A stretch of 19,646 nucleotides of DNA from an uncultured Prevotella sp. (GTDB taxonomy: Bacteria; Bacteroidota; Bacteroidia; Bacteroidales; Bacteroidaceae): positions 1 to 19,646 of the forward strand of contig CAMYZK010000010.1 of the NCBI GenBank assembly GCA_947303825.1. Reading direction: 5' to 3'. Shown in pieces: positions 1-14,434 of this stretch. Under the pieces are notes generated by a model that did no database searches, was not told the origin of the DNA, and saw only the letters and a program-made list of their open reading frames with translations. Both the position numbers and the translations under genes were made by a program. Within the stretch, counting starts at the first letter, position 1; each line of letters begins with the position of its first letter.

Positions 1-253
1 CAAGTATCTTTGCCATCATAACAGTATCTGTGGCAAACTCGAACTTACCATCCTTTATCTCTATCGAATCGACATACTCTGCCGTCTGCGGACCTGTCAA
101 TGGTACAAGGAATATGCGTTTCCCGTTATACTGGCCGGGAATGGTGCCGTGTATACGGCACTTGCCTGTAGCATCACTTCCTGCTCCACCGCAGTTGCAA
201 AGCATCATCACTGTAATGGATAGTACCGTGCTCAATAAAAATGTCTTTCTCAT
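1..253 (-). CDS. DUF4369-type lipoprotein, N-terminal part (cut by window edge)
   Basis: The start codon is the ATG at 253-251 and 84 codons are visible before the left edge, so the gene is partial. The N-terminus MRKTFLLSTVLSITVMML is a signal peptide, followed by a CNCGG stretch where lipidation is plausible although the lipobox is poor. The mature part begins with a beta-rich pattern (CRIHGTIPG, then GKRIFLVPL, then VDSIEIKDGKFEF). This is typical of the DUF4369 domain that precedes a thioredoxin-like (TlpA/AhpC) domain in many Bacteroidetes envelope proteins. The thioredoxin part, if present, lies outside the window. The gene is 62 bp downstream of the propeller lipoprotein gene on the same strand, so it is probably the third gene of that operon. 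The family call is from the motif pattern only. Confidence 0.7.
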   Translation of the reverse strand, partial: MRKTFLLSTVLSITVMMLCNCGGAGSDATGKCRIHGTIPGQYNGKRIFLVPLTGPQTAEYVDSIEIKDGKFEFATDTVMMAKIL

Positions 254-315
254 TTGTTGTTGTTCTTTGGCTATATAGTTGCGTATTTGTTGACCTCTGC
301 CTTTACCACATAATC

Positions 316-1779
316 TCACTTTATTTTAACTTTCTTCCTTTCCCCGCTGAACACCTGTCTCTGTGCCTCACGTACGTCAAAGTCTACCGGTACCTTGGTG
401 AAGTCGGGCACATTGTATGCCTGGAACAGCTCTCTGTAGTATTTCCTTGGGTTGCGCTGTGGCAGCATGAAAGGTTTAGTGGCCCGTCCCTCGTCATCAA
501 CCGAAGAGATGAAGAGCTGAGTGTACATGCCGTCGGTACGTTTCGAAGAGAACACAAACCATCGGCTGTTAGAACTCCAGTTGTGGTAGCTTTCTGTGGC
601 AGCACTGTTCACCTCGTCCATAGACCGGCTTTCTCCTGTCTTGAGGTCCATAATCCATAGGTCGGCATCTTTCTGGCACACGGGGAAGTTGCTGCGCGCG
701 CTTATGGTGTACATGAGCCACCGCCCGTCATAGCTCGGCCTTACCAGCGTAGCACTCTTTCCAATGCTGTCGGCAGAAACCAGCGTATCAGCAACAGTGC
801 CGAAGGCTGCCGAGTTGGCATCGAATGGTATGCGACAGATGGAACATCTCACCTTCTCATATTCTGCTGGCAAGCGGCAAGTCTTCGAGGTGCTGTAGTA
901 CAGCCATTTCCCATCGTGCGAGAAAGCAGGGAATATTTCCTGATCGGCAGTCTGTAGCAATGGCGTGAGCAGCAGCTCATTGGTCTTGGTGTCGAGCACA
1001 ATAATGTTACTGAAGCTGTGGTAGGCCTCCATTCTGTCGGCAGCACCGGTAAAGAACCCTTGGTGTACGGCATTGGCTGCGTATGCACAGTATCTGCCCG
1101 AGGGATGCCAGTAGGCGTATGAGCCGGCAGCCTTTGTAGAGTCGGTCTTGGTATCGAGCCACTGCTGGAGGCCGTCCTTCTGTATCATTGTCCCTCCGCC
1201 GCTGCCCCTTATCTGCAAGGTGAGCTGTGAGGGGTTGCCACGATTTGGAGTGTGGCAGTTGAAACATCGTCCCGGCAAGGCAGTCTCAAGCAGGAGAGGC
1301 TTCTCCTCAAAGGAGTGCAGGTCACGCTCGTAGATACCAATGTCGCCACCCACCTCATATCCAGGAGCTATGCGGCGGTAGGTGAGCCCGTAGTCATCGA
1401 GCGGATACTGGCTCACATGAATACTGAAATCACGCCACTGTGTCCACTGACCGTTCTTCCTTGTGCACACGGTAAGCATGAGGTCGCCTCCTTTGTTCTG
1501 AAGGGTAAGCTCTTTCCATTCGTCTTCGTCAAACTCAGCCCACTCTCCGTTGACGTGCATTTCACCGCCCTTGCTTCCGCGCACAGTGACGTCCATGCAG
1601 TCTATGGTCTCGTCGGCAAAGTTGAAGTCCAGCGGTGCTATGCCAGCAGGTATCGTAACATCGGTGTAGTCGGGAAAGATGCTGGGCATACTGTCAGCCT
1701 GCACTACGTCGTGCGGTTTGCCGCTACCGCATGCACACAGGACAGAGACGAGGCATACTATGTATAGAATTGTCTTCAT
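316..1779 (-). CDS. Lipoprotein with TolB-like (PD40) beta-propeller and a CxxCH motif
   Basis: This is a 487-residue exported protein. Residues 1-17 form a lipoprotein signal ending in LCAC, with Cys17 the likely lipidated residue. Residues 30-160 look like a beta-sandwich. Residues 172-176 read CFNCH, a CxxCH motif of the kind that binds c-type heme, set in an otherwise conserved-looking segment (NRGNPSQ follows). From about residue 220 there are repeated PD40/WD40-like blade motifs: HPSGRYCAYAA, FSHDGKWLYYSTS, SYDGRWLMYTIS and WSSNSRWFVFSSKR. This suggests a six-bladed propeller. The start lies 1 nt after the stop of the DUF6057-like gene, so translation is probably coupled. The role is unknown: it may be a monoheme envelope protein, or the cysteines may serve another purpose. 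A redox role is inference. Confidence 0.8.
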   Translation of the reverse strand: MKTILYIVCLVSVLCACGSGKPHDVVQADSMPSIFPDYTDVTIPAGIAPLDFNFADETIDCMDVTVRGSKGGEMHVNGEWAEFDEDEWKELTLQNKGGDLMLTVCTRKNGQWTQWRDFSIHVSQYPLDDYGLTYRRIAPGYEVGGDIGIYERDLHSFEEKPLLLETALPGRCFNCHTPNRGNPSQLTLQIRGSGGGTMIQKDGLQQWLDTKTDSTKAAGSYAYWHPSGRYCAYAANAVHQGFFTGAADRMEAYHSFSNIIVLDTKTNELLLTPLLQTADQEIFPAFSHDGKWLYYSTSKTCRLPAEYEKVRCSICRIPFDANSAAFGTVADTLVSADSIGKSATLVRPSYDGRWLMYTISARSNFPVCQKDADLWIMDLKTGESRSMDEVNSAATESYHNWSSNSRWFVFSSKRTDGMYTQLFISSVDDEGRATKPFMLPQRNPRKYYRELFQAYNVPDFTKVPVDFDVREAQRQVFSGERKKVKIK

Positions 1780-1780
1780 G

Positions 1781-3331
1781 CTATTTCTGTACTCCAGCCA
1801 TAAATCGTTTCACATACCGCCCGTAAGGCGAGTCAACGGCAGTGCGACTCCGCATGCAGCTCACGGCATCCTGCCAAGCCATGGGCATCACCTCATAGCC
1901 ACCATGCTTCTGTGCCAAAGGCAGCGACTGCATGAACAGCTGCGCATCGCACTTCAGCAGCAGTTGGCAGAGGAAGTACTCTAGAGCCATCTTGTTGCTG
2001 GTGTCCTGCATAAAGAGCAGCCCCAGCATCTTGTCTATCTCTCCATAATTGTATAAAAAGCTCTGTGCATAACGTTTCTGGCGCTGTTTGCCCCACACTG
2101 GGTGGGCGTTTATGGCAGCCTCGCTGCCCAGGCTTTTTTCGGCTTCCTCGGCCCATGAGCTGTAGAAAAGGGTTTTCTTCAGCAGAGCCAAGTGTTTCCT
2201 TGCCACATCATACTGTCCGTTTACTATCAGGCACTCTGTGATGCGCTTCTCAAACCTCCCGCTCTTCCTGGCGTTAAGAATTGATTCCTGCAGGTCGCTG
2301 TAGTATCTCAGTGCCGAGTTTACCATGCCCAGCCGCCAGAAAGCCTCTGCCGTAGGCAGGTTGGTCATGTTGTCGCGTACCATGGGCGACAGCAATGCAT
2401 TGGGGCCACTCTGCCAATAGTCGAAAATCTTGTCGGCCAGTTGCCCCTTTGCCGATAGTGCCAGGTTGACGCTATTCGACCAGAAAGGAGTTTGTACCAC
2501 ACGCCTGGAAGCTCGTTCCAGCAGTTTGTCCCATTGCTCATGGCGTATCAGGTAGTCCTGCTTAAGCAGTTCGTACTTGTCGCTGTTGTAACCACTAAGG
2601 TCAGGCCACTGCATGGGTATTCGGTAGTAGTTAAGGCCCGTCCACACCATCTGCCGAGGCCACTGACGCAATAGCCACGTTCCTGCTGCCCACTGCACCG
2701 CAAGCAACCATAGCGGCAAGACAACCGCCATAACCCGTAGCTTTATGGATGCCCGCCGCAGTGGAGTATTTGCAATACGCAGGGCAACATATATCCACAC
2801 CACAGGCCCTATGGCCCAATAAATGAGCGGCACTGCCGGCAGGTCGGCCCACATGGGCATACGCCTAAAGGCCAGGGCTGTTGCCAGAGCCATAGTGAAA
2901 GCCACCGGCAGTGAGAGCAGAACGTTCTCGTCGCCCATGAGCCATAGGAAGAACAGGGATGGGAGTAGCGAGAACACCTGCCGTATCCATTTTCCTGCTT
3001 TGCGGCTGTGCGACACCGACTCGTTGCCATTCAGCAGCCGCAGTGTTAGCTGCTGCATTATTGCAAAGAGCAGCGCTAGCAACAACGCGCCCACCCATTC
3101 TACATAATAGAACTGTACAACAAACTCTGCCGTCCAGTCGGCAAGACCACCTGCTACCGAAATACGTTCAAAGAAATAGTCAGAAGACCATAGGAAAAGC
3201 TGATTCTGCTCATGGTACGACAAGGTCTCTGGATGACACTGCCACCAGAAGACAAACACTGTAACGGCTATAGCTGCCGGTAGGAGCAGACCAGAACCCC
3301 AGCGCACGATATTTTTGCGTAAACTCAGCAT
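1781..3331 (-). CDS. Polytopic membrane protein with helical C-terminal domain (DUF6057-like)
   Basis: A 516-residue protein from the ATG at 3331-3329 (MLSLRKNIVRW). A TTG three codons upstream at 3340 is possible but unlikely. The first 220 residues hold about six hydrophobic segments, including LLLPAAIAVTVFVFWW, VGALLLALLFAIM, SLLPSLFFLWLMG, LLSLPVAFTMALATALAF, PLIYWAIGPVVWIYVAL and VLPLWLLAVQWAAGTWLL. The remaining 290 residues are soluble and rich in helices, with a TPR-like feel (for example ERASRRVVQTPFWSNSVNLALSAKG). I recognise the overall pattern as the Bacteroidetes DUF6057 family, from memory. It is the first gene of the minus-strand operon. Its promoter lies inside the left arm of the inverted repeat, which gives a very short 5' leader of about 10 nt. 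The function is unknown. Confidence 0.75.
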   Translation of the reverse strand: MLSLRKNIVRWGSGLLLPAAIAVTVFVFWWQCHPETLSYHEQNQLFLWSSDYFFERISVAGGLADWTAEFVVQFYYVEWVGALLLALLFAIMQQLTLRLLNGNESVSHSRKAGKWIRQVFSLLPSLFFLWLMGDENVLLSLPVAFTMALATALAFRRMPMWADLPAVPLIYWAIGPVVWIYVALRIANTPLRRASIKLRVMAVVLPLWLLAVQWAAGTWLLRQWPRQMVWTGLNYYRIPMQWPDLSGYNSDKYELLKQDYLIRHEQWDKLLERASRRVVQTPFWSNSVNLALSAKGQLADKIFDYWQSGPNALLSPMVRDNMTNLPTAEAFWRLGMVNSALRYYSDLQESILNARKSGRFEKRITECLIVNGQYDVARKHLALLKKTLFYSSWAEEAEKSLGSEAAINAHPVWGKQRQKRYAQSFLYNYGEIDKMLGLLFMQDTSNKMALEYFLCQLLLKCDAQLFMQSLPLAQKHGGYEVMPMAWQDAVSCMRSRTAVDSPYGRYVKRFMAGVQK

Positions 3332-3348
3332 CGTTTGCAATCAGGCGG

Positions 3349-3356
3349 CAAAGTTA
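3349..3356 (-). promoter_or_regulatory. -7 promoter box for the DUF6057-like operon
   Basis: On the minus strand the sequence reads TAACTTTG, matching the Bacteroidetes -7 consensus TAnnTTTG. The expected transcription start is about 3342, which is exactly the outer end of the inverted repeat and only about 11 nt before the ATG at 3331. A -33 TTTG at the standard spacing of 19-21 bp was not found; a T6G run lies 12 bp upstream instead. Confidence 0.6.
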
Positions 3357-3424
3357 CTAAGAAGTGGGCAAAAAACTATGATTGTTGTGTTAATTTCCGT
3401 AAATTCAGTATGAAAATGTGTTAC

Positions 3425-3463
3425 AAAAAAATGCCGCACCTCGCGGCGCAGCATATTTTTGTA
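3425..3463. terminator. Terminator-like hairpin at inner end of left arm
   Basis: A GC stem (GCCGC at 3433-3437 and GCGGC at 3443-3447, loop ACCTC) is preceded by seven A and followed shortly by five T, so it could end transcription in both directions. It sits upstream of the promoter, which suggests it insulates the promoter from transcription entering through the spacer. Confidence 0.55.
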
Positions 3464-3464
3464 T

Positions 3465-3847
3465 GATACCTACCCCACCCCCGACCCCACCCTTAAGGGG
3501 CGGGGAGTGCCATGGGCTCGTTAGTTGAAGGTGGTGGTCTTTTTAAAGTAGACTCTTAACTCAACTTTCACAAGTATATAATAACCACATAACCACGAAT
3601 TACACTCGCTACACTGCCGCTTTTACAGATTTTACCGCTCGGCTCTGCCGCTTGCTACCAGCGGGACGCAAGAAAGCGTAGCGACTAAAAGAATTAAACG
3701 GATTTTTGGCTGCGCGTTTTCAGGCTTTTGTCACATTTCAACAATACGCTAACTATATGTAATATAGACAGTTACGGGGCAAAGCGCACAAAGGTGCACA
3801 AATGCACAAATCACATTTGGCGTTTTTTTGACGATTTGTTAAGATCT
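3465..3847. other. Gene-free spacer between the inverted repeat arms
   Basis: These 383 bp hold no plausible gene on either strand. They contain a C-rich/G-rich palindrome near 3474-3508, an AACCACGAATTA motif at 3591-3602 that recurs in inverse orientation near 19403-19415, a GAATTAAACG motif near 3691, a GC-rich stretch around 3634-3685, and three close copies of GCACAAA between 3785 and 3810. The content looks like a mosaic of degenerate intergenic repeats. Confidence 0.75.
3474..3508. repeat. C-rich/G-rich palindromic intergenic repeat
   Basis: Runs of CCCC separated by single bases are followed by a central CCTTAAGG palindrome (3491-3498) and then GGGG runs, forming an imperfect hairpin. 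This kind of sequence is a familiar dispersed intergenic palindrome in Bacteroidetes genomes, recognised from memory. Only one copy is in the window. Confidence 0.5.
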
Positions 3848-3848
3848 A

Positions 3849-3887
3849 TACAAAAATATGCTGCGCCGCGAGGTGCGGCATTTTTTT
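3849..3887. terminator. Terminator-like hairpin at inner end of right arm
   Basis: This is the inverse copy of the hairpin at 3425-3463. GCCGC and GCGGC pair around a GAGGT loop, flanked by A5 on the left and T7 on the right, so it could act in both orientations upstream of the tsaB promoter. Confidence 0.55.
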
Positions 3888-3955
3888 GTAACACATTTTC
3901 ATACTGAATTTACGGAAATTAACACAACAATCACAGTTTTTTGCCCACTTCTTAG

Positions 3956-3963
3956 TAACTTTG
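3956..3963 (+). promoter_or_regulatory. -7 promoter box for the tsaB operon
   Basis: TAACTTTG matches the Bacteroidetes -7 consensus TAnnTTTG. The transcription start is expected near 3970, the outer end of the arm, giving a leader of about 20 nt to the ATG at 3991. No TTTG lies at the usual -33 spacing. Confidence 0.6.
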
Positions 3964-3990
3964 CAGCCTGTAAGAACAATACTAAGGAAA

Positions 3991-4704
3991 ATGGCATGCA
4001 TTCTTCATTTAGAGACGAGTCAGACTGGTTGCTCTGTGGCAGTGTCTGACGACTCACAGGTGATATACCATGATGAGAGCAGCAGCGATACCAGCAAAGG
4101 CAGTAGTGCAGAGCACCTCGGAACGCTAGTTGACGAAGCGATGTCGTTTGCAGACAGTCATGCCATACCCTTTGATGCCGTGGCAGTGAGTTCTGGTCCG
4201 GGGTCGTACACCGGACTGCGCATAGGTGTCTCCATGGCTAAGGGAATCTGCTATGGGCGTGATTTGAAACTTATTGCAGTGCCTACACTACAGCTGCTCT
4301 GTGTCCCTGTTCTGTTGAGGATGGGAGAGAAAGACATTGAAGAGACGCCAGAACCCATACTCTGCCCAATGATTGATGCCCGCCGTATGGAGGTCTACGC
4401 TGCCCTATTCGACAGAGCCTTGCGACCGGTAAGGGAAGTCCAGGCCGACGTTGTGGATGCTGACACCTACCGCCAATGGTTAGACCAGAGGCCTGTGTAC
4501 TTCTTTGGCCCGGGGGCAAAGAAATGCATGCCAGTAATTAATCATCCCAATGCGCGCTTTATTGATGGCATAGAGCCGGTGGCAAAATGGATGCAGCCGC
4601 TTGCAGAACGGAAGCTTATTGAAGGGAAAACAGAAGACGTGGCCTACTTTGAACCTTTCTATCTGAAGGACTTTGTGGCAAAGAAAGCCAAGGAACTCTT
4701 GTAG
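3991..4704 (+). CDS. tsaB: tRNA t6A threonylcarbamoyl transferase complex dimerisation protein TsaB
   Basis: A 237-residue protein. TsaB (YeaZ) partners the catalytic protein TsaD and, with TsaE, makes the t6A modification at position 37 of tRNAs that read ANN codons. It has the ASKHA fold start ILHLETSQTGCSVAV and the family hallmark VSSGPGSYTGLRIGVSMAKG at about residues 69-88. The length fits the family (about 230). The start chosen is the ATG at 3991, preceded by AAGGAAA as a ribosome-binding site; an upstream TTG at 3961 falls before the predicted transcription start. It is the first gene of the operon tsaB, DUF4290 gene, murA, rimM, transcribed from the promoter in the right arm of the inverted repeat. 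Confidence 0.93.
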   Translation: MACILHLETSQTGCSVAVSDDSQVIYHDESSSDTSKGSSAEHLGTLVDEAMSFADSHAIPFDAVAVSSGPGSYTGLRIGVSMAKGICYGRDLKLIAVPTLQLLCVPVLLRMGEKDIEETPEPILCPMIDARRMEVYAALFDRALRPVREVQADVVDADTYRQWLDQRPVYFFGPGAKKCMPVINHPNARFIDGIEPVAKWMQPLAERKLIEGKTEDVAYFEPFYLKDFVAKKAKELL

Positions 4705-4744
4705 GCTGATATTTAAAACGTGAACTAGAAAAGACTGACAAAAG

Positions 4745-5353
4745 GTGAATATTCAAGGATTAGACTACAACACTCAGCGCCAAGGGTTGCTTATGCCCGA
4801 ATACGGCAGGGAGATTCAGAAAATGATTGACTACGCAGTAAGCCTGCCTGACAGGGAGGAAAGACTGAAATGTGCCAAGACAATAGTAAAACTTATGGAG
4901 AATAAGTTGTCGGGGGTGCGCGACAACTCTGACTATCAGCAGACGTTGTGGGACCACCTGTTCCTTATGAGCGGAAAGCAGCTCGACATAGACTGGCCAT
5001 ACGATGTAGGCAACGCTGAACAGATTTTGCTTAAGCCAAACCCTATGCCAAGACCATCGGCAACAATCAGGCTAAGGCACTACGGGCGCCTGGTGGAGGA
5101 GCTGACAGAAAGGCTGAAGAACATGGAGGAAGGGCCTGAGCGCGACGAGCTGACACGGCACACCGCAAACCAGATGAAACGCGACCTGGTGGTGTGGGGA
5201 CACGGCTCAATAGACGACGAGAAGGTGGCCGACGACTTGGCAAGGCTCACCGACGGCGTGATACAGCTGGACTTGAACAACTTCAAGTTTGAGAAATTCC
5301 TGCCCGCTAACGAGTTGCCTGCAAAAAACTCTGGAAAGAAAAAGAAAAAATAA
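4745..5353 (+). CDS. DUF4290 family protein
   Basis: A 202-residue soluble protein beginning at a GTG (AAAGGTGAATATTC) and read MNIQGLDYNTQRQGLLMPEYG. This N-terminus, the segment SDYQQTLWDHLFLMSG, and the central PMPRPSATIRLRHYGRLVEEL are typical of the DUF4290 family, which I recall as a Bacteroidetes-only family often found just before murA. The C-terminus ends in a run of lysines (SGKKKKK), which may bind nucleic acid or be a disordered tail. There is no signal peptide or membrane segment, so it is cytoplasmic. It lies 40 bp after tsaB and 19 bp before murA. The biochemical role is unknown. Confidence 0.85.
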   Translation: MNIQGLDYNTQRQGLLMPEYGREIQKMIDYAVSLPDREERLKCAKTIVKLMENKLSGVRDNSDYQQTLWDHLFLMSGKQLDIDWPYDVGNAEQILLKPNPMPRPSATIRLRHYGRLVEELTERLKNMEEGPERDELTRHTANQMKRDLVVWGHGSIDDEKVADDLARLTDGVIQLDLNNFKFEKFLPANELPAKNSGKKKKK

Positions 5354-5372
5354 CGAAAACAGATAATAGAAG

Positions 5373-6689
5373 TTGGCATCATTCATAATTGAAGGCGGAA
5401 GACAGCTAAGCGGAACCATTACACCACAGGGAGCTAAGAATGAGGCCCTGGAGGTGATTTGTGCCACATTGCTTACCAGCGAGAAGGTTACCATAAGCAA
5501 CATCCCTAACATTAGAGACGTACAGAACCTTATCTTGCTGCTTAAAGATATTGGCGTGAAGGTGAGCATGCCAGAGGGAGAACAGAAGGGCACCTACACT
5601 TTCATGGCCGACGAGCTGAACATAGAATACCTCAAGAGCGACGATTTCATCAGAAAGTGTGCCGAGCTGAGAGGCTCGGTGATGATGATTGGCCCGCTGC
5701 TGGCACGCATGGGTAAAGCCATTATTGCCAAGCCCGGTGGCGACAAGATAGGACGTCGCAGGCTGGACACTCACTTCCTGGGCTTTGAACGGCTGGGGGC
5801 ACATTTCAACCATGTACCAGAGCGAGGCGTATACGAGATAACGGCAAACAGGCTGCACGGAACATACATGCTACTAGACGAGGCCAGCGTGACAGGTACA
5901 GCCAACATCATCATGGCTGCAGTACTGGCAAAAGGCGTTACGACCATATACAATGCAGCATGCGAACCGTATATTCAGCAGTTGTGTAACATGCTAAACA
6001 GCATGGGAGCGCATATCAGCGGCATTGCATCTAACCTCCTCACAATACGTGGAGTAAAAGAGTTGCATGGCACACAGCACACCATTCTGCCCGACATGAT
6101 TGAAGTGGGATCGTTTATCGGCATGGCTGCAATGGTGGGCAACGGTATTACAATAAAGAACGTGTCGCTGCGCAATCTGGGCATCATTCCCAACACCTTC
6201 AGACGGATGGGGATAAAGATACGCGAGGAGGGCGACAACCTCTTTATTCCATACATGCGCCACTATGAGATACAGTCGTTTATCGACGGCACCATAATGA
6301 CCCTGGCCGATGCACCATGGCCAGGATTGACCCCCGACCTCATCTCTGTACTTATCACTGTGGCATCGCAAGCAAGAGGGAGCGTGCTGTTCCACCAGAA
6401 GATGTTTGAGAGCAGGCTGTTCTTTGTAGACAAACTGATAGACATGGGAGCCCAGATAATACTCTGCGACCCTCACCGTGCCGTGGTTGTAGGTCACGAC
6501 CGCAAACTGCAGCTACGTGGCGGACGCATGTCAAGTCCCGACATACGTGCAGGTATTGCACTGCTCATTGCTGCACTTAGTGCCAAGGGTGTAAGCAGGA
6601 TAGACAATATTGAGCAGATAGACCGGGGATACGAGAACATTGAGCATAGGCTCAATGCACTAGGTGCACAGATAAGCAGAATAAGCTAA
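5373..6689 (+). CDS. murA: UDP-N-acetylglucosamine 1-carboxyvinyltransferase MurA (Asp in place of the catalytic-loop Cys)
   Basis: MurA moves enolpyruvate from PEP to UDP-GlcNAc, the first committed step of peptidoglycan synthesis, in the cytoplasm. The 438-residue length fits the family (about 420-440). The conserved Lys-Asn pair is at residues 22-23 (QGAKNEAL). The flexible loop reads PGGDKIGRRRLDTHF, so residue 124 is Asp where many MurA enzymes have the Cys targeted by fosfomycin (PGGCxIG). The inside-out alpha/beta repeats are intact (GTANIIMAAVLAKG, LPDMIEVGSFIGMA, LTPDLISVLITVASQARG, DIRAGIALLIAALSAKG). The start is a TTG at 5373, the only start that gives the full N-terminus MASFIIEGGRQLSG. 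It lies 19 bp after the DUF4290 gene and 8 bp before rimM. Confidence 0.95.
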   Translation: MASFIIEGGRQLSGTITPQGAKNEALEVICATLLTSEKVTISNIPNIRDVQNLILLLKDIGVKVSMPEGEQKGTYTFMADELNIEYLKSDDFIRKCAELRGSVMMIGPLLARMGKAIIAKPGGDKIGRRRLDTHFLGFERLGAHFNHVPERGVYEITANRLHGTYMLLDEASVTGTANIIMAAVLAKGVTTIYNAACEPYIQQLCNMLNSMGAHISGIASNLLTIRGVKELHGTQHTILPDMIEVGSFIGMAAMVGNGITIKNVSLRNLGIIPNTFRRMGIKIREEGDNLFIPYMRHYEIQSFIDGTIMTLADAPWPGLTPDLISVLITVASQARGSVLFHQKMFESRLFFVDKLIDMGAQIILCDPHRAVVVGHDRKLQLRGGRMSSPDIRAGIALLIAALSAKGVSRIDNIEQIDRGYENIEHRLNALGAQISRIS

Positions 6690-6697
6690 CAGTACAA

Positions 6698-7216
6698 ATG
6701 CCAATGCTGAAGGAAGAAGACGTCTACAGAATAGGCCGATTGGGGAAGCCCCACGGTGTGAAGGGAGAAATATCCATGCAGGTCGACGACGATGTCTTCG
6801 ACCGTACAGACTCCGACTTCCTGATACTACGGATTGACGGCATCCTGGTGCCTTTCTATATGGAAGAGTACAGGTTCAAGACCGACACCACCGCTCTTGT
6901 AAAGTTTGAAGATGTAGACTCGGTGGAGCGGGCTCGTGAGCTTACGAACAGCGATGTGTTCTTTCTTCGAAGCATGGCCGAGGGGCAGGACGATGATTAC
7001 ACCTGGGAGTTCTTCGTGGGTTTCACCCTTACCGACGCATCTTCAGGCAAGGAAGTAGGGCGCATAGACGCTGTTGATGACAGCACGCAGAACGTGCTTT
7101 TCTGTCTGGAAGACGGAACAATGATTCCCGCTGCCGATGAACTAGTGGCCGACATCGACCACGAAAACAGGATAATCTCCATGCACCTGCCCGAAGGCAT
7201 TCTGGGACTGACCTAG
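6698..7216 (+). CDS. rimM: 16S rRNA processing protein RimM
   Basis: RimM is a 30S ribosome assembly factor that binds ribosomal protein S19 and helps mature the 3' domain of 16S rRNA. The 172-residue protein has the N-terminal RimM barrel with the hallmark GRLGKPHGVKGEI at residues 13-25. A PRC-barrel follows from about residue 100 (YTWEFFVGFTLTDASSGKEVGRIDAV), ending with the expected MIPAADELVADID segment. The ATG at 6698 is used; ATG at 6704 is an alternative. It is the last gene of the tsaB operon. Its TAG stop overlaps the TAG stop of the convergent hydrolase gene through a shared CTAG, so no separate terminator fits between them. Confidence 0.93.
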   Translation: MPMLKEEDVYRIGRLGKPHGVKGEISMQVDDDVFDRTDSDFLILRIDGILVPFYMEEYRFKTDTTALVKFEDVDSVERARELTNSDVFFLRSMAEGQDDDYTWEFFVGFTLTDASSGKEVGRIDAVDDSTQNVLFCLEDGTMIPAADELVADIDHENRIISMHLPEGILGLT

Positions 7217-8514
7217 TTACCCCTGATTACAGTTTTCATCACCTCTTCCGGCTCTATTGTAACCTTACTCTCATCAATCATCTTTCGGTCAAGGTTGAAG
7301 ACGTCGGCAAAGAAGTCGTAGACGGCCTGACGCTTGTTCGGGCCGAAGTCGTGACGCTCGCCAGGCAGGTGTACGTTGCGCACTTGTTGTTCGGCACCGT
7401 AGAAAGAGAAGATGCGTCTTATGAAAGGGTATTCAAGCACTGGGTTAGTAGAGGTCCAGTCGCCACCATCGCTCACCAGCAATAGGGGACGTGGGGCAAT
7501 GATGGCGGCCAGCTCTGCCTCGCATGTGCCGCCTCCGGCTAGCTGTACGGGCATGCCGCTCTCACAGGGACAGCCACCGTCGAAGTGGCTGGCCACATGG
7601 ACTATTGGGGCCGAGGCTGTGACACGGCTATCGAGCAGCGTCAAAAGCACCGTGTGTGTGCCGCCACCGCTGCCACCATTGGCAGCCACACGGGTGGTGT
7701 CGATGTCTTTCCTGTTCTTCAACATCCAGTCAAGCAACTTCCATGAGCATGCTGCCTGGAACACATGGGCACGGGCTACGTTGTGGTTGCCCACCTCGGC
7801 TTTAGACTGTGAGTAGCCATAGAGGTCGAAGTCAACGCAGATGGCTCCCATACGTGCCAGGGTGGCCAGTCGCTGCTGTTCGTCATCACGGTAACGTGAG
7901 GGCCAGTGACCGTCGGGACAGATGACAAGTGGCTTCTTGCCTTTCTTGAGAGAGGTGTAGATGGTGCCGAAGACATGTTGGCCAGGTGTCAGTTCCAGAC
8001 AGATGTTCTGGGTGGTGTAGCCATCATGCTTGCGCACCTTCGACAAGATGGGCCTGGGGTCGCTGACACATGAGTCAAGGAAACGGTCAAAGCCCAGCCT
8101 CGCGCGTACTTCTTTTATTAATATGGCACGGCGTTGCTCCCATTGCTCCTTGTTGCTATACTTGGAAGAGAGGTATTCCAGCATCTGCCTGCCTTCATCC
8201 TCATGGCGTCGCGGATATTCGTAGAGCTTTATTTTGTAAGTTTTCTCATTCTGCTTCCACCAGTTCCAGTCGTAGTACTTGCAGATGTTGTCTAGAGTCA
8301 GTTCCAAGGAGTAGGGACGCACACGGAAGTCGGCATACGGCAGGACAACCCCGGCAGTATCTACATTGCTGTCAAACTTCAGTTTCACGCCGAAGTGCCT
8401 ACTCACTTCCTGTAAGATGTTGTGTACCGGCCGTTCATAGCGGGTCTCAAAGGTCTGGGCGCTTGCACAGACGGTTGAGAGGGAAAATGATAATGCTATC
8501 CAGAATGTTTTCAT
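7213..8514 (-). CDS. Secreted alpha/beta hydrolase (acetylxylan-esterase-like) with N-terminal STN-like domain
   Basis: A 433-residue exported protein. Residues 1-20 form a signal peptide (MKTFWIALSFSLSTVCASAQ). Residues 27-97 resemble a short secretin/TonB (STN) domain: VHNILQEVSRHFGVKLKFDSN, a middle strand pair, LELTLDNICKYYDWNWW, then KTYKIKLYE. From about residue 180 there is an alpha/beta hydrolase core: GTIYTSLKKGKKPLVICPDGHW, the nucleophile elbow GGSGG with Ser282, a likely acid near Asp349/Asp352 (LLVSDGGDW), and His388 in PGERHDFGP. This fits esterases that remove acyl groups from plant polysaccharides. It lies 39 bp after the giant glycosidase gene on the same strand, so the two probably act together on one glycan. 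The exact ester substrate cannot be told. Confidence 0.75.
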   Translation of the reverse strand: MKTFWIALSFSLSTVCASAQTFETRYERPVHNILQEVSRHFGVKLKFDSNVDTAGVVLPYADFRVRPYSLELTLDNICKYYDWNWWKQNEKTYKIKLYEYPRRHEDEGRQMLEYLSSKYSNKEQWEQRRAILIKEVRARLGFDRFLDSCVSDPRPILSKVRKHDGYTTQNICLELTPGQHVFGTIYTSLKKGKKPLVICPDGHWPSRYRDDEQQRLATLARMGAICVDFDLYGYSQSKAEVGNHNVARAHVFQAACSWKLLDWMLKNRKDIDTTRVAANGGSGGGTHTVLLTLLDSRVTASAPIVHVASHFDGGCPCESGMPVQLAGGGTCEAELAAIIAPRPLLLVSDGGDWTSTNPVLEYPFIRRIFSFYGAEQQVRNVHLPGERHDFGPNKRQAVYDFFADVFNLDRKMIDESKVTIEPEEVMKTVIRGN

Positions 8515-8535
8515 TTATTTTCGGTCTTTTTGTGT

Positions 8536-8592
8536 CGTTATTACGTTATTACGCTATTTCGTTATTACGTCATTCCGAGATAACGTGATAAC
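8536..8592. repeat. Short tandem repeats of CGTTATTA type across a gene end
   Basis: About seven degenerate units of 8-9 bp (CGTTATTA, CGCTATTT, CGTCATTC, then the inverse form GATAACG) run through the intergenic gap and into the last codons of the glycosidase gene. They encode its final residues around RNDVITK. Confidence 0.7.
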
Positions 8593-11500
8593 ACCCAGGT
8601 CAGGACAGTTGGCAGCCGGGCGGCCGTCAACCATGAGGGTAAGGCCTCGGCCTTGGTGGTAGTGTTGGCCGTTTTTATCCCAGACGATAGTGATAATGTG
8701 ACCACGATAGCTGATGCCGTCGAGACAGAAGTATGCCCACTTGTCCTGCGGAATAAGCGGGTTGACAACGATGCTACCGTCAAGCTGAGGGCGCAGGCCG
8801 CATATGCCGGTGATGATGAGGTCGTTGTAGGTGGAGTGGTTATAGTAGCGCGAGCGCTCACGGTCGCCCATCAGCCAGGCACCATTGGTCTCGTCCAAAT
8901 ACTCGCCGATATAGGGACGGCCGCGGTGATGCTGACTCTCGGTGTAGAGCTGCATCTGCCTGAAGAAAACCGAATCAAGCCGAGGATAAGGATACGGACT
9001 TGTATTCAGATAATTGGCCATAGCCGTCAATGTCTGGGATGTGGCAAAAGGCCAAATGGCTCCGTCCCACTCGCACTTGCCCACACCATGACTGCGGAAC
9101 TCCGGATGACGCCGTTCAGCAGTAGTCAGACCATAGGGTGCAGAGAAGCCCTGTTCATCGAAGACCTGCTTCCAAGCATCGTCATGGTAATTTTTTGGTG
9201 GAAAAGACATCATATACATGGTAGAATCACACGAAGGTATTCCGAAGTACCAAGGAATGTAGCCGATGGCCTCACGCACTTGAGCCAACGTATCGCCACG
9301 CAGCGTCTCATAGAACTGGTGGTCAGCATTCCACAGCTTCGTCTCAATGAGTTGGCGTAGCGTATCTGCCTTCTGCTCATAAAGGGAAGCCTTGGTACTG
9401 TCACCCCACATATAATTAATATACGCGAGGGCCTTGGCATTGCCATACATATAGCTGTTGATGGTGGGGCGAGCATACTGCTTCTTGCGGCCGCCGCTGA
9501 TGCTCTCCTCCATGCCGTCCTGCACGTCACCCTGCCAGTAGAGACCGCTGGGCAGGCGGTTGGTACGCTCCCAGCGGGCATACTCCTCTTCTAAGCGGGG
9601 CTTCAGCGAAAAAAGGAAAGCTGTGTCGCCCTGCACCTTCCACATGTCAAGGATGGCGTAGGGATTCCAAGAAGAGAACTTATTCATCTTCGTCATTGCC
9701 TGACCGTCGTTGCCAAAGTACCAGGTGCGCAGAATCTGGTGCAGGTAGGTGGTGTCGCGCAGCCAGCGGCTCTCCATCACGTGGTGACCGATGGCACAGG
9801 CAATGAGGTTGTAACGGTCGGCATAGCTGCGTTGCACTAGGAACTCGGTCATGCCGTAGCCAACGGGCGTGCGCTTGATGTGCTTGCGCAGCGTCCACCA
9901 ACGGTAGTAGTACATCTCGCGCATCTGCTCATCGGGGCAGTCGAAGAGGGGAATGTTCTCGCGCATCCAGGCCGAAGCCTGCGCATTGGGAATGGTGGTA
10001 ACGATGTTCTCGTCCTCCATCGTATTGAAGCAGTCGGCATAGTGGGCGAAATCGTCATAGGCAAGCACAGCAGTCCTGGTAGCCTCGGTAGTCTCTGCAG
10101 CCCCGGTAGTCACATTGGCCAAGGCAAACCTGGCCACTTTGTCGCTCTCATCGGCACGGGGTTGGTCGAAGTCCTGATCGGCAGGGGTATCGGTGTTTGG
10201 CTCGTGGAAAATGGAACCCGTGCGGAAGACAACGCGTGAAATGCTCTCTACAGGAGTGTCGAACTGGCGAGTACACTTACCTATAGGACTCATAGGGCTA
10301 CGACTTATAGTAAATGCCGCCCGGTGAAGCTCGCAGGAGAGCATTGCTGTAATATGGTAGGTTACGCCTGGCTCATATTTCTTAAGTAGGGTGCCGTAGC
10401 GAGCACCTCCTTTCACGCGGATGGTGCCAGTGCTGTCGGCAACGATACGTGAACAGACGGAACCCTGATCATCAACAAACTCTATGTCCAGCTCACCATG
10501 GTCTGCCTGGTCAAAACGGAGGTCGAACTCCACCTTCAGTTCCTTCGTGTTGGGGATGATACGCTCAGCCTTGGCGTAGTCGTAAGGGTCGCTGTCGTTA
10601 AGCGATAGCCACTGACCGTCGAGGGTGACGGGAGCGAGGAGGGGGGAGTAGATATTCCAGTCAGTAAGTTGCGACAGAGTGGTGAACATACTGAACGAGC
10701 CGTTGGCGTGAGTGGTGGCGTTGAGGCGCACTGGTACGGGGATGCGGCTTACCCACATATCCTCCTTGTTGTTTGAAAAGGTAACCCAGAGGTCTTTTGG
10801 TAGTTTAGAGCCTAAAGTGTAGAGTGTAGAGTTCTTGGACGAGCCAAGCGGCATAGCCGAGCGTGCTGCCGCAGTCCTTTCTGCCAATGGTAAGGCAGAA
10901 GCCACTCTGCACTCTAAATTTTCGATGCCTCTCACGTACTGGGGGCCGTAGCTCTTGTACTGACCGCCATGGCGCAAGGGTGTCACCTCGCCATTGACGA
11001 GCGAGAGTGTGGTGTAGTCCAGCCCGTCGGAGGATAGGCTGATGGCAAGTGGCCAGCGATATTCGGCCGGATTATAGACGGTGGCGTAGGTGCCATCACT
11101 CAGCCGCTGTCCCCATATTTTAGCATTGCTGTTTACAAATCCTGGTGCACGGTCACAGCCCAAGCGTCCGCTCTCAGGCACAATGACCTGCCGCCAGGTA
11201 TTGCCGCCATCAGCAGAAAGGCTTGTCACGGCGTGCTTCCAAAGAGCCACCTTTCGCCCGTCGGGTAGCGTGTAGCCGCAAAACGCCTTATAGGGTTTGT
11301 CAAGGGGTATGAGCTTGTCGCCACGGTCGGCCTCCTCCACCCATTGCATGCGCTGCATTGGGTCGGCCAGCATCTGGTCGATGGCCTTAACGAAGGCCTT
11401 GTCCTTACTCTTCTTATAATACGGGTAAACCGTATTACGCTCTGAGAAACCGTGGTTATAATAAATGAAATAAATGGGGCCGAGCGTGCCGTCCTCGAAG

Positions 11501-12891
11501 ACGCGCCGCGCCACGCGGCCTATGCCATTGCCGTCGTTGGGGTCGTCTTTAATGGTGAGACAGATGCCATAGCTGCCAGTAGCAAGGAGAACAGACGAGT
11601 CCTCATACCAACCTACGCGCTGGTGCATCACTGCCTTGAGATTATGGGCAGGGGGAAAGGCCTTGCCCTCCTTTGTCCAGCCTTCAGGCACGGGGTATTC
11701 GGGGAAAAGCTCTATAGGGGCAGTCCAGGTGTAGCCGTCAGCAGATGTCTGGAGCATGGTTTTGCCGGGAGCCTCGTGTTCATGCCGTGGATCGGTAAGA
11801 TAATGTATGTAGAACTTTCCTTTCCAATAGGCCATCATTGGCTGGTGGTTATACGTCCAGGGCTTCTCGCCACGCATAGTCTGTATGGTATGGACGCCTA
11901 ACACGGGTTTCAGGCCACCGTCGTGACGTTCGGGACGGGCTATGGTCTTACCACTGTAGTGCACCACATCACGGTAATACTTGACGAGCCCCTCCACGAG
12001 CTTCTCGTCGGCCATGAACACCGTGCCATGCTTATGCCCTACAGGGAAGTTGACGGCTCCCGTCTGGTCTTGGAAGGTCTTAAAATCCTTGGTGCGGTGG
12101 GCACCATAAATCTTATGTCGGTATGAGTCGTAGTAGATGTACCACCAGTCACCCACCCTGGCGGTTGAAGGCCCTTCAGTGAAGCTTTCAGTAAAAGGCT
12201 CTGAGGCTGCACTCCACGGACCGTAGGGCGACTGGGCAAATGCCACCTTTATGTTACGCATGGGCCGCGAATTGTCTTTCACCACCATCACGTAGTCCTT
12301 TGTGCCTCGTTTCACCATCGTGGCATCGATGGCCGAGAAGCCGGGGTCGTAAAACAGCTTTGCCTCAGAGAACTTCTTGAAGTCGCGGGTGGTCATATAG
12401 TAGAGGCGGTGGTTGTTCTTGTGATCTTCCTGATAGTCAGGAAATCGGCCGGGTACACACGATGCCCATACAATGAGGAACTGTCGTTTCACGTCATCAT
12501 AAAACAGCTCGGGGGCCCAGGTATTCACTGTGGTGGTGTCCATGCCAGTAGGGATGAACTGCTGCTGACTCCAATGTATTAAGTCTTTCGACGATGAGTA
12601 GCCGAAACCACGGTCTCCCCGCCAAGATGATGTCCACACCAAATGGAAGGTACCATCAGGGCCTTGTACAACCGACGGGTCACGCATCACTTTCTGCGTT
12701 CCCACCTCCGGACGCAGGAACACCCCCTCTATGGAGTCCCATCTCAGGCCGTCGCAGCTGTATATAAACCTCAGACCCTCCGTGGCAGGCTCATGAAACG
12801 AAGTAGAAACATAGATGTCTTTAGCAAATCCTGTCAGGAAGAGACATGCCGTTAGTAGTGTAATTAGTAGTTTGTTTGTCTTGTTGCCCAT
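8554..12891 (-). CDS. Multidomain glycosidase: GH43-like domain, sialidase-like propeller, jelly-roll, and (alpha/alpha)6 MGH1/GH63-like domain
   Basis: A 1445-residue exported protein with a signal peptide at residues 1-23. Residues 25-310 look like a GH43-type five-bladed propeller with all three expected acids: Asp71 (VMRDPSV), Asp189 (SAIDATMV) and Glu239 (FTEGPSTAR). Residues 320-720 form a second propeller of sialidase/BNR type (SADGYTWTAPIEL, SLSADGGNTW, NNKEDMWVSRIPVPV). Residues 740-930 look like a concanavalin-type jelly-roll (KELKVEFDLRFDQADHGELD). Residues 950-1370 look like an (alpha/alpha)6 barrel with WQGDVQDGMEES (Asp1125, Glu1128), CEWDGAIWPFATSQTL and GEYLDETNGAWL (Glu1330, Asp1333, Glu1334), followed by a C-terminal beta-sandwich. 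The reading frame is unbroken. A GH43-family arabinanase or xylosidase activity plus a second exo-glycosidase is likely; the substrates are unknown. Residues 661-697 look like an in-frame repeat insertion. Confidence 0.8.
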   Translation of the reverse strand: MGNKTNKLLITLLTACLFLTGFAKDIYVSTSFHEPATEGLRFIYSCDGLRWDSIEGVFLRPEVGTQKVMRDPSVVQGPDGTFHLVWTSSWRGDRGFGYSSSKDLIHWSQQQFIPTGMDTTTVNTWAPELFYDDVKRQFLIVWASCVPGRFPDYQEDHKNNHRLYYMTTRDFKKFSEAKLFYDPGFSAIDATMVKRGTKDYVMVVKDNSRPMRNIKVAFAQSPYGPWSAASEPFTESFTEGPSTARVGDWWYIYYDSYRHKIYGAHRTKDFKTFQDQTGAVNFPVGHKHGTVFMADEKLVEGLVKYYRDVVHYSGKTIARPERHDGGLKPVLGVHTIQTMRGEKPWTYNHQPMMAYWKGKFYIHYLTDPRHEHEAPGKTMLQTSADGYTWTAPIELFPEYPVPEGWTKEGKAFPPAHNLKAVMHQRVGWYEDSSVLLATGSYGICLTIKDDPNDGNGIGRVARRVFEDGTLGPIYFIYYNHGFSERNTVYPYYKKSKDKAFVKAIDQMLADPMQRMQWVEEADRGDKLIPLDKPYKAFCGYTLPDGRKVALWKHAVTSLSADGGNTWRQVIVPESGRLGCDRAPGFVNSNAKIWGQRLSDGTYATVYNPAEYRWPLAISLSSDGLDYTTLSLVNGEVTPLRHGGQYKSYGPQYVRGIENLECRVASALPLAERTAAARSAMPLGSSKNSTLYTLGSKLPKDLWVTFSNNKEDMWVSRIPVPVRLNATTHANGSFSMFTTLSQLTDWNIYSPLLAPVTLDGQWLSLNDSDPYDYAKAERIIPNTKELKVEFDLRFDQADHGELDIEFVDDQGSVCSRIVADSTGTIRVKGGARYGTLLKKYEPGVTYHITAMLSCELHRAAFTISRSPMSPIGKCTRQFDTPVESISRVVFRTGSIFHEPNTDTPADQDFDQPRADESDKVARFALANVTTGAAETTEATRTAVLAYDDFAHYADCFNTMEDENIVTTIPNAQASAWMRENIPLFDCPDEQMREMYYYRWWTLRKHIKRTPVGYGMTEFLVQRSYADRYNLIACAIGHHVMESRWLRDTTYLHQILRTWYFGNDGQAMTKMNKFSSWNPYAILDMWKVQGDTAFLFSLKPRLEEEYARWERTNRLPSGLYWQGDVQDGMEESISGGRKKQYARPTINSYMYGNAKALAYINYMWGDSTKASLYEQKADTLRQLIETKLWNADHQFYETLRGDTLAQVREAIGYIPWYFGIPSCDSTMYMMSFPPKNYHDDAWKQVFDEQGFSAPYGLTTAERRHPEFRSHGVGKCEWDGAIWPFATSQTLTAMANYLNTSPYPYPRLDSVFFRQMQLYTESQHHRGRPYIGEYLDETNGAWLMGDRERSRYYNHSTYNDLIITGICGLRPQLDGSIVVNPLIPQDKWAYFCLDGISYRGHIITIVWDKNGQHYHQGRGLTLMVDGRPAANCPDLGVITLSRNDVITK
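10801..10922. repeat. Palindromic repeat element inside the glycosidase gene
   Basis: The ends form an imperfect inverted repeat (plus strand: TTTAGAGCCTAAAGTGTAGAG on the left and CACTCTGCACTCTAAAT on the right). Inside are two more stems: CGGCA with TGCCG, and TCTGCC with GGCAGA. The left end has 7-bp repeats (TGTAGAG). It is translated in frame as residues 661-697 of the glycosidase, a low-complexity stretch rich in Ala, Ser and Leu that sits between propeller segments. Confidence 0.65.
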
Positions 12892-12904
12892 AATTAAGTA
12901 ATAA

Positions 12905-12941
12905 CCCGATGATGCACAGTATCTGCTCTTGCATCATCGGG
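12905..12941. terminator. Hairpin between the DUF4923-like gene and the glycosidase gene
   Basis: A perfect 12-bp stem (CCCGATGATGCA at 12905-12916, TGCATCATCGGG at 12930-12941) has a 13-nt loop. Read on the minus strand it lies 20 bp after the lipoprotein stop and is followed by TTATTACTTAATT, so it could be a weak terminator or an attenuator ahead of the glycosidase start at 12891. Confidence 0.6.
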
Positions 12942-12960
12942 GCTGGTGACAGTGTGCCTG

Positions 12961-13617
12961 TTACTTAAAGTCAAATCCTATACGAAGTCCGTCGTAGCTC
13001 TTTGAGATTTCTCCCACTGCCTGCACACTGGTATTGCCGCTGAGAGCCGATACCGTCTGTAGCAGCGTCAGTAGCTTAGTACCTTCAAAGAGCAGACCAA
13101 TGCCGCTGGTGTTGCGCTTCGCATAGCAGTTGATGGTCAGCAGCAGAGCCTTCATTGTTACCTTGCCCGTCTTTTCGTCGTAGGTGTAGTTGCCGCTGAG
13201 GTTCTTGCCTGCAAAGGTGGCAGCAAAGGTGCCATCCTGGTTGAACGTCACCTTGGTGTTGCTCGACTTAACACCCAGCTTCTCAAAAGTAGGTTGCAGT
13301 TTCGATTTTACCTGCGATGCAACAATCTCGCCTCCAGCCTGCGCCAGCAGCTTGTCACTAGTAAAGGCACACCCCGGCTGACTGTATGTCCACGAACCTA
13401 CCAGCTGCTGCTGAGTGGGAATGGTTTTGGATCCGAGCACACTTCCCAGAATATTGCCAAGGGCGTCTGTTGCATTTGCCACATTAGTACCTCCCGTGCC
13501 CAGTACGTTGCCTAGCACTTGAGTACCCACCTGTGTCCATGCCGAGTTGTTTGTACCACATCCAGCCAATAGTGCGCCAGATAGTAGAATAGAACTAAGG
13601 ATAATACTTTTTTTCAT
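12961..13617 (-). CDS. Small lipoprotein, DUF4923-like (lipocalin-type fold likely)
   Basis: A 218-residue lipoprotein with a clear signal and lipobox (LSGALLAGC, lipid on Cys20). A Gly/Asn/Thr-rich linker follows (residues 25-62). The rest, from QQQLVGSWTYSQPGCAF, shows the pattern of a small beta-barrel: VGSWTY start, KVTFNQDGTFAATFAGKNLSGNYTYD, TGKVTMKALLL, GLRIGFDFK end. This matches the Bacteroidetes DUF4923 family as I remember it; members are lipocalin-like lipoproteins of unknown role. It has its own -7 box at 13649-13656 and a leader of about 25 nt. It is upstream of, and on the same strand as, the glycosidase gene, but the hairpin between them may separate their transcripts. Confidence 0.8.
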   Translation of the reverse strand: MKKSIILSSILLSGALLAGCGTNNSAWTQVGTQVLGNVLGTGGTNVANATDALGNILGSVLGSKTIPTQQQLVGSWTYSQPGCAFTSDKLLAQAGGEIVASQVKSKLQPTFEKLGVKSSNTKVTFNQDGTFAATFAGKNLSGNYTYDEKTGKVTMKALLLTINCYAKRNTSGIGLLFEGTKLLTLLQTVSALSGNTSVQAVGEISKSYDGLRIGFDFK

Positions 13618-13648
13618 TGATTTGGTGTTTAGTTAAGCAATTATGCTG

Positions 13649-13656
13649 CAAAAGTA
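13649..13656 (-). promoter_or_regulatory. -7 promoter box for the DUF4923-like lipoprotein gene
   Basis: The minus strand reads TACTTTTGCAGC, matching TAnnTTTG, about 32 bp upstream of the ATG at 13617. No good TTTG is visible at the -33 position. Confidence 0.5.
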
Positions 13657-13696
13657 ACAAATTTTGCTTTAATGTCAGCATTTTTTATGAAGAAAA

Positions 13697-13728
13697 TTTG
13701 GCTAAATGGGAAAAAAAACGTAATTTTG
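13697..13728 (+). promoter_or_regulatory. Promoter of the tRNA-Glu / rpsT unit
   Basis: TTTG at 13697-13700, a 20-bp spacer, and TAATTTTG at 13721-13728 match the Bacteroidetes housekeeping promoter in sequence and spacing. Transcription should begin near 13735. A hairpin (GAAAGACGGT paired with ACCGTTCTTTC, 13743-13769) follows in the leader before the tRNA. Confidence 0.75.
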
Positions 13729-13780
13729 CACCCGATTTTGTAGAAAGACGGTAAGAAACCGTTCTTTCCAACAAGGAAGG

Positions 13781-13853
13781 GGTCCCTTCGTCTATCGGTT
13801 AGGACGAGAGATTTTCATTCTCTAAAGAGGAGTTCGACTCTCCTAGGGACTAC
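13781..13853 (+). tRNA. tRNA-Glu (anticodon UUC)
   Basis: A full cloverleaf can be drawn. The acceptor stem is GGTCCCT with AGGGACT (first pair G-U) and the discriminator base is A. The anticodon stem GAGAG/CTCTC-type encloses loop TTTTCAT with anticodon TTC. The T arm is AGGAG, TTCGACT, CTCCT. The 3' CCA is not encoded. GTCTATCGGTTAGGAC forms the D arm. It is probably cut from a transcript that continues into rpsT. Confidence 0.95.
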
Positions 13854-14262: not shown

Positions 14263-14291
14263 CACATTTTTGAATTCTTCCATACGATTCT

Positions 14292-14324
14292 GGCCGTGCA
14301 AGCATCATGCTTGTGCGGCTTTTT
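14292..14324 (+). terminator. Intrinsic terminator of rpsT
   Basis: GGCCGTGCAAGCAT pairs with ATGCTTGTGCGGC (G-U pairs allowed) and is followed by TTTTT, 30 bp after the rpsT stop. Confidence 0.85.
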
Positions 14325-14370
14325 CATGCACGCCTCCTACCCTTGTTTGAGGCAACAATATTGTATGGAA

Positions 14371-14426: not shown

Positions 14427-14434
14427 ATGTCCGT

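What the first reader, a model, noticed from the sequence alone, without database searches (positions are those of the whole stretch)
3342..3970. 123-bp near-perfect inverted repeat around a gene-free spacer, between two divergent operons
Two arms of 123 bp match at 121 positions with no gaps, and similarity stops sharply at both ends. Non-coding arms this similar should drift unless they arose recently, are kept alike by gene conversion, or recombine with each other. Recombination between the arms would invert the 383-bp spacer while leaving both outward promoters in place. The structure could also be a short non-autonomous mobile element with long terminal repeats, or a locus whose read-through RNA folds into a 123-bp duplex.
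Basis: partly seen in the sequence, partly recalled or inferred. Interest (0 to 1): 0.7.

Follow-up and report, generated by a model that had tools for sequence, protein, structure and literature searches.

The report
Inverted copy of a promoter cassette
In this uncultured Prevotella-like bacterium, a 123-base control stretch (a transcription stop plus a promoter) that belongs to one gene appears to have been copied, flipped, in front of its unrelated neighbour; this looks like a one-off accident of DNA copying rather than a genetic switch.

Summary
Arms 3342-3464 and 3848-3970 match at 121 of 123 positions, with sharp ends and no gene between. In 1.07 Mb of the same draft genome the next-best inverted repeats are 43 of 50 and 35 of 38.

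Each arm, inner to outer, is a strong terminator hairpin, about 65 bp, and a Bacteroidota -7 promoter box, ending near the predicted start. The left arm looks native to the DUF6057 gene: the sequence past the arm matches a DUF6057 paralogue's start better than any of 118 control sites, and a terminator before the promoter is common at DUF6057 (14 of 28 loci) and rare at tsaB (1 of 89). So the tsaB-side arm is best read as a recent inverted copy, probably by template switching or conversion seeded in the shared promoter core.

An inversion switch, a mobile element with 123-bp ends and an RNA duplex are poorly supported. The spacer is partly scrambled dispersed repeats, one MITE-like. No close relative or reads were available, so assembly error at a 64-bp repeat in the spacer is not excluded.

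The parts
1781..3340 (-). DUF6057 gene, first gene of a DUF6057-PD40 operon; proposed source of the arm
   Evidence: Pfam PF19529 E 1.9e-109; frame
3342..3464 (-). left arm: terminator hairpin (inner), promoter (outer), reading toward DUF6057; proposed original copy
   Evidence: polarity
3349..3356 (-). -7 promoter box TAACTTTG of the left arm, facing outward
   Evidence: consensus TAnnTTTG as given in PMC7366714 (passages)
3422..3463 (-). terminator-like hairpin of the left arm (core 3431-3454 plus A/T stem)
   Evidence: mirror of the fold
3454..3461 (+). TATTTTTG, an inward-facing match to TAnnTTTG inside the left arm's hairpin; function doubtful
3465..3555 (.). truncated, internally rearranged copy of dispersed repeat family A (full copies 211-213 bp with inverted ends, MITE-like)
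3587..3703 (.). copy of dispersed repeat family B; 3630-3693 is 64 of 64 identical to two places in locus L146
3704..3847 (.). part of the spacer with no match in the held 41% of the genome
   Evidence: no match either (40 of 177 candidates scored)
3851..3858 (-). TATTTTTG, an inward-facing match to TAnnTTTG inside the right arm's hairpin; function doubtful
3849..3890 (+). terminator-like hairpin of the right arm; its base lies 1 nt inside the arm's inner end
   Evidence: fold -25.4 kcal/mol, z -6.6, 0 of 200 shuffles as good
3848..3970 (+). right arm: same unit reading toward tsaB; proposed inverted copy
   Evidence: polarity
3956..3963 (+). -7 promoter box TAACTTTG of the right arm, facing outward
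3991..4704 (+). tsaB-like gene (recipient side)
   Evidence: Pfam PF00814 TsaD family E 9.4e-23; the name tsaB is recalled from length and family

Best explanation
The inverted repeat is a recent inverted duplication of a complete regulatory cassette. The upstream region of the DUF6057 operon, consisting of a rho-independent-type terminator left from a former upstream gene, about 65 bp, and a Bacteroidota -7 promoter, was copied in reverse orientation in front of tsaB and replaced tsaB's own promoter. The likely route is a DNA-synthesis template switch or non-reciprocal conversion. The two divergent genes would already have carried near-consensus promoters, which are natural inverted repeats of about 25-30 bp. 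Copying began in that shared core, so similarity ends just past it on the outside, and ran until the base of the terminator hairpin, where similarity ends on the inside. As a result, both genes start from the same promoter sequence and both are insulated by a terminator from anything transcribed in the spacer. Shown here: the arms, their layout, their uniqueness in what was searched, and the DUF6057-like character of the cassette. Inferred: the direction, the copying mechanism, tsaB's earlier promoter, and that both promoters work.
For: (a) The arm equals one functional unit: hairpin -25.4 kcal/mol, z -6.6, and a -7 box 7 nt before the outer end. (b) Direction: the 30 nt after the -7 box on the DUF6057 side align to the start of the DUF6057 paralogue on contig C117 with local score 16, against a maximum of 10 at 118 other TAnnTTTG-to-ATG sites (19 contig stretches of this genome plus the window); the tsaB side scores 6, reached by 56 of 118. 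The 28 nt up to and including the box match the paralogue at 26 of 28, against a maximum of 23 at 110 sites of the same 19 stretches. (c) A same-strand terminator-like hairpin lies within 200 nt upstream in 14 of 28 DUF6057 loci (letter shuffles: mean 0.2 of 28) but in 1 of 89 tsaB loci. (d) At the outer mismatch the left arm and the paralogue both have C, the right arm A. (e) Two full copies of the arm in the assembly, both here; none found in 199 other genomes of the genus (4 candidates scored per genome). (f) The adjacency is unusual: DUF6057 was not found in the held flank of any of 80 relatives' tsaB loci (6 of them have under 1000 nt upstream), and a YicC-family gene, the commonest divergent neighbour of tsaB (43 of 75 loci with a called upstream frame), is on another contig here. 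(g) Template switching between inverted repeats is a published cause of arm homogenisation (PMC8604942, passages read).
Against: No genome close enough to show the state before the event: best tsaB identity elsewhere is 81%. The direction rests on one paralogue that is only 24-33% identical in protein and on an architecture seen in half of the DUF6057 loci looked at, which are related to each other. Published template-switch cases favour short spacers (PMC8604942), and 383 bp is long. Surveys found no second convincing case. The spacer's other scrambles could equally come from ordinary recombination among repeats.
Confidence: 0.6

Rival explanations
1. Short-read assembly error: two separate places that each carry the cassette were joined through the dispersed repeat B (64 bp identical elsewhere), so the true genome has no inverted repeat at this spot.
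For: The genome is a 385-contig draft, 70.7% complete. 3630-3693 is identical to two places in L146. The DUF6057-tsaB neighbourhood was not found in 80 relatives.
Against: The cassette would still be present twice in the genome. The 64-bp repeat and the 86-bp perfect arm run are shorter than usual reads (general knowledge; read length unknown here).
Confidence: 0.15
2. Old inverted repeat kept alike by repeated gene conversion or by selection for a shared regulatory signal upstream of both genes.
For: Near-identity across non-coding DNA; both arms end at functional borders.
Against: No comparable repeat at 80 relatives' tsaB loci (the best, L101, has 43 of 50, mostly promoter consensus by eye), and no match to the arm pair in 396 other related genomes (2 candidates scored per genome). 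Outside the promoter core the arm has one weak match in 199 other genomes, 86% over 36 bp in G033, so no conserved signal is visible.
Confidence: 0.12
3. Invertible segment: recombination between the arms flips the 383-bp spacer.
For: Arms are long enough for homologous recombination (general knowledge); Bacteroidales use inverted repeats flanking invertible promoters (PMC8748976, passages).
Against: No TAnnTTTG lies in the spacer proper on either strand and both outward promoters lie outside it, so a flip is neutral to both genes; none of the 14 proteins scanned in the window is a recombinase; in PMC8748976 the promoter lies inside the invertible part.
Confidence: 0.06
4. A non-autonomous mobile element with 123-bp terminal inverted repeats inserted between the genes.
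For: Inverted arms around a gene-free core; MITE-like repeats exist in this genome.
Against: Two full arm copies only, both here; no match of 3300-4010 in plasmid or phage records; no direct flanking duplication by eye; the arms hold a promoter that fits both start sites.
Confidence: 0.04

Closest known systems
Template-switch homogenisation of imperfect inverted repeats (quasipalindrome mutations; PMC8604942 passages, PMC7202029 and PMC8794818 search listing only)
   Same: One arm of an inverted repeat is remade from the other, giving near-perfect arms with sharp ends; the same process can invert the spacer.
   Different: The cases seen in the PMC8604942 passages have short arms and short spacers; here 123 bp is copied across 383 bp and carries a whole terminator-promoter unit to a different gene.
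Invertible promoters of Bacteroidales (PMC8748976, passages)
   Same: Inverted repeats between genes in the same order of bacteria.
   Different: Those have the promoter in the invertible middle and an invertase; here the outward promoters lie in the arms and no recombinase was found among the 14 window proteins scanned.
MITEs of Bacteroidales (Porphyromonas MITE, PMC4596501, search listing only)
   Same: Repeat family A in the spacer has MITE-like inverted ends (17 of 19 in the L141 and L145 copies) and several dispersed copies.
   Different: The 123-bp arms themselves are not a dispersed family.

Membership tests
Template-switch / conversion-derived inverted duplication | Near-identical inverted arms with abrupt ends in non-coding DNA | tested here: met
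   121 of 123, no similarity beyond the ends
Template-switch / conversion-derived inverted duplication | One arm shown to be original, the other derived | tested here: inconclusive
   Paralogue start region and terminator architecture favour DUF6057 as source, but no pre-event genome was found
Template-switch / conversion-derived inverted duplication | Pre-existing inverted homology that could seed the switch | tested here: inconclusive
   The outer about 30 nt is a generic promoter of the genus, also before two tRNA genes and unrelated genes; tsaB's earlier promoter is unknown
Invertible promoter (phase switch) | Promoter inside the invertible segment | tested here: not met
   No TAnnTTTG in 3465-3847 on either strand; the four matches in 3342-3970 are all in the arms, two outward and two inward. 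The sigma-70 type scan of 3200-4100 gave 1 hit against 1.5 expected
Invertible promoter (phase switch) | Invertase gene nearby | tested here: not met
   14 window proteins scanned, none a recombinase; two of them had no Pfam hit. A distant invertase was not sought
Invertible promoter (phase switch) | Both orientations seen in reads | not testable with these tools
   No reads available
MITE with the arms as terminal repeats | Multiple dispersed copies | tested here: not met
   Two full-length matches, both here; none found in 199 other genomes of the genus
MITE with the arms as terminal repeats | Target-site duplication | tested here: not met
   Flanks printed show no direct repeat by eye

The most novel reading that the evidence does not exclude
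In Bacteroidota, divergent genes with near-consensus promoters form natural inverted repeats, and template switching seeded in these cores can transplant a whole terminator-promoter cassette from one gene to its divergent neighbour: a general route by which neighbouring operons come under the same control.
Probability: 0.12. Interest if true: 0.6.

Novelty: new member of a known kind. Interest (0 to 1): 0.3.

Why it matters
If right, it is a freeze-frame of promoter replacement by inverted copying in a bacterium, with the direction readable. It puts tsaB, a tRNA-modification gene that is essential in many bacteria (recalled), under a copy of the promoter of an unrelated operon of unknown function. 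It also shows that a long inverted repeat in a divergent intergenic region need not be a switch. As a single case without a sister genome it is a modest finding.

Tried and rejected
Arm as a dispersed repeat: rejected, the partial matches elsewhere are nearly all to the promoter core. In one search only 4 first-look candidates per genome were scored and only 2, so weak hits may be missing there; all 19 were scored. Known structured RNA: the two Rfam matches were far below the gathering score (20.8 and 19.7 against 55). Conserved inverted repeat at relatives' tsaB loci: rejected. L101 shows a 43-of-50 repeat between the yicC and tsaB promoters, which I first took for a second case; most of it is generic promoter consensus (judged by eye), so I do not count it. 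L019 and L050 repeats are low-complexity or repeat tracts. My first gapped surveys failed to list the window's own repeat, so they were replaced by the ungapped surveys. An exact 38-base arm piece in viral contigs and 3300-4010 in plasmids and phages gave nothing. A former upstream gene of DUF6057 was sought in this genome: a partial homologue lies on contig C249 in a different setting. My notebook gives denominators 79 and 28; the recount gives 75 and 27.

Full report
Observation. The window is contig C10, bases 1-19646, of a 385-contig draft genome, 70.7% complete, of the Prevotella group: the closest named tsaB relatives are Prevotella and Prevotellaceae metagenome genomes at up to 74% identity, and the closest unnamed one reaches 81%.

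Is it unusual? An ungapped search for inverted repeats (seed 12, arms within 1500 nt, minimum score 24, low-complexity hits and gaps under 15 nt dropped) over 80 contigs or contig stretches of the same genome plus the window, 1,070,497 of 2,626,065 bases, gave ten hits. This one scores 117; the next two score 29 (43 of 50 in L144; 35 of 38 in L211). In 1,434,993 bases of mixed loci held earlier (minimum score 26), six records were this same locus (five loci and the window) and 13 were others, the best being 38 of 38 in L093 with a 31-nt gap.

What the arms are. Read from the spacer outward, each arm starts one base before a hairpin (3849-3890 in the right arm) that folds at -25.4 kcal/mol with z -6.6 and holds a T run on its outer side. 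About 65 bp later comes TAACTTTG, which fits the Bacteroides -7 consensus TAnnTTTG as quoted in PMC7366714 (passages read). The arm ends seven bases after that box. The outer 30 or so bases are a generic promoter of the genus: similar stretches stand before a tRNA-Leu gene, a tRNA-Arg gene and various protein genes in other genomes. Outside that core, the only match in 199 other genomes at E 1e-3 is 36 bp at 86% in G033 (4 candidates scored per genome). So the arm is a terminator-promoter cassette, present twice, each time pointing at the neighbouring gene. Result against simplicity: each hairpin also holds an inward-facing TATTTTTG (3454-3461 on +, 3858-3851 on -), so weak transcription into the spacer is conceivable; it would run into the opposite arm's terminator.

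Neighbours. Left: DUF6057 followed by a PD40 protein. Right: a TsaB-like protein, then DUF4290, an EPSP-synthase-family (MurA-type) protein and RimM. In 80 relatives' tsaB loci no DUF6057 was found in the held flank, though 6 of the 80 have under 1000 nt upstream. A divergent YicC-family gene is the commonest neighbour: 43 of 75 loci with a called upstream frame (family from Pfam on the L031 member). Here it lies on contig C7 behind an rlmH-like gene (that name is recalled). In nine genomes for which I compared the listings by eye (G020, G092, G149, G166, G220, G322, G332, G340, G352), the best DUF6057 and tsaB matches are on different contigs. DUF6057 usually has a co-directional gene upstream: in 16 of 27 loci with a called upstream frame these form one family, without a Pfam hit in the one member scanned.

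Direction of copying. Two tests point the same way. First, a DUF6057 paralogue on contig C117, also followed by a PD40 gene, shares the promoter core with the arm (26 of 28 bases; best of 110 other sites 23). More tellingly, it shares the bases after the arm's end with the DUF6057 side only: local score 16, against a maximum of 10 among 118 control sites, while the tsaB side scores 6, which 56 of the 118 reach (controls from 19 contig stretches plus, for the 118, the window). At the outer mismatch the left arm and the paralogue both have C. Second, a same-strand terminator-like hairpin within 200 nt upstream is found in 14 of 28 DUF6057 loci (the 29 best-scoring loci fetched from the genus search, where 196 of 398 genomes had a match, less one without upstream sequence) but in 1 of 89 tsaB loci (80, 9; two of them have less than 200 nt upstream). 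Terminator plus promoter is therefore a common way for DUF6057 to start and a rare one for tsaB, and the tsaB copy looks like the newcomer. Limits: the paralogue is distant in protein (24-33%), the loci are related to one another, and no pre-event genome was found in what I could search (396 other genomes, 2 candidates scored each).

The spacer. Much of it is pieces of dispersed repeats; 3704-3847 has no match in the held part of the genome. Family A (3465-3555) has copies elsewhere of 211-213 bp (L141, L138) and a shortened one of 133 bp (L145) that begin and end in nearly the same inverted sequence, 17 of 19 bases in L141 and L145, so it is MITE-like; the window's copy is truncated and has part of its left half inverted and joined to its right half. 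The left arm directly abuts the broken end of this copy. Family B (3630-3693) is identical over 64 bp to two other places on contig C9. Two scrambles in one short spacer fit a history of template switching or recombination here, but do not prove it. They also make a misassembly thinkable.

Mechanism. I favour a template switch or non-reciprocal conversion seeded in the promoter core, because the outer end of identity falls just after the core and the inner end at the hairpin base. Homogenisation of inverted-repeat arms and spacer inversion by template switching are described in PMC8604942 (passages read), there with short spacers; ours is long. The expected effect is that tsaB now starts from the same promoter as DUF6057 and that both genes are shielded from spacer transcription. 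Neither was measured.

Rivals. Inversion of the spacer cannot be excluded but would not move either outward promoter, and Pfam shows no recombinase among 14 window proteins scanned, two of which had no hit. In PMC8748976 (passages) the promoters lie inside the invertible part. The arms as ends of a mobile element fail on copy number, absence of a flanking duplication, and absence from plasmid and phage records. The 629-nt stretch would fold into a long duplex if transcribed whole, but terminators in both arms face outward, and the inward boxes would give only the spacer and the opposite hairpin. Assembly error remains the strongest rival.

Verdict. A real, recent-looking and locally unique inverted copy of a regulatory cassette; interesting as a frozen example of promoter replacement, ordinary in kind. 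A search for papers naming inverted repeats, divergent promoters, template switching and bacteria gave two papers, neither on this subject by title and abstract start; that is no proof of absence.

Noticed in passing
L138:5837-6049, L141:3794-4004, L204:1928-2127, L218:7385-7579, L238:7370-7564, L239:3137-3333: Dispersed repeat family A, 211-213 bp where both ends were matched (L138, L141), ends in nearly the same inverted sequence; these six copies are 93-100% identical to the L138 query in 41% of the genome. Looks like a MITE; no transposase and no literature match was sought for it.
   Followed up: partly
window 3587-3703; L146:12646-12709 and 15973-16036: Family B: tandem-like CTCGGCTCTGCCGCTT units with a following conserved block, many intergenic copies up to 100% identical; parts also occur in other genomes of the genus.
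   Followed up: partly
L146:11190-12740, L156:14596-15094, L138:12063-12563: Tracts of repeated short units (AGTGAAG- or AGTGTAG-like), several ending in TGCTACCGC, in both orientations.
   Followed up: no
L157:5282-6673: DUF6057-PD40 paralogous operon whose start region resembles the window's DUF6057 start at DNA level although the proteins are only 24-33% identical; unexplained.
   Followed up: partly
L101:4418-4979: Divergent yicC and tsaB promoters share 43 of 50 bases as an inverted repeat, largely generic promoter consensus by eye.
   Followed up: partly
window 3454-3461 (+) and 3851-3858 (-): Inward-facing TATTTTTG matches to the -7 consensus inside both hairpins.
   Followed up: partly
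window 8527-8582: Direct repeat of 8-nt period (a 24-nt unit matched in five registers) overlapping the 3' end of the long frame 8554-12891.
   Followed up: no
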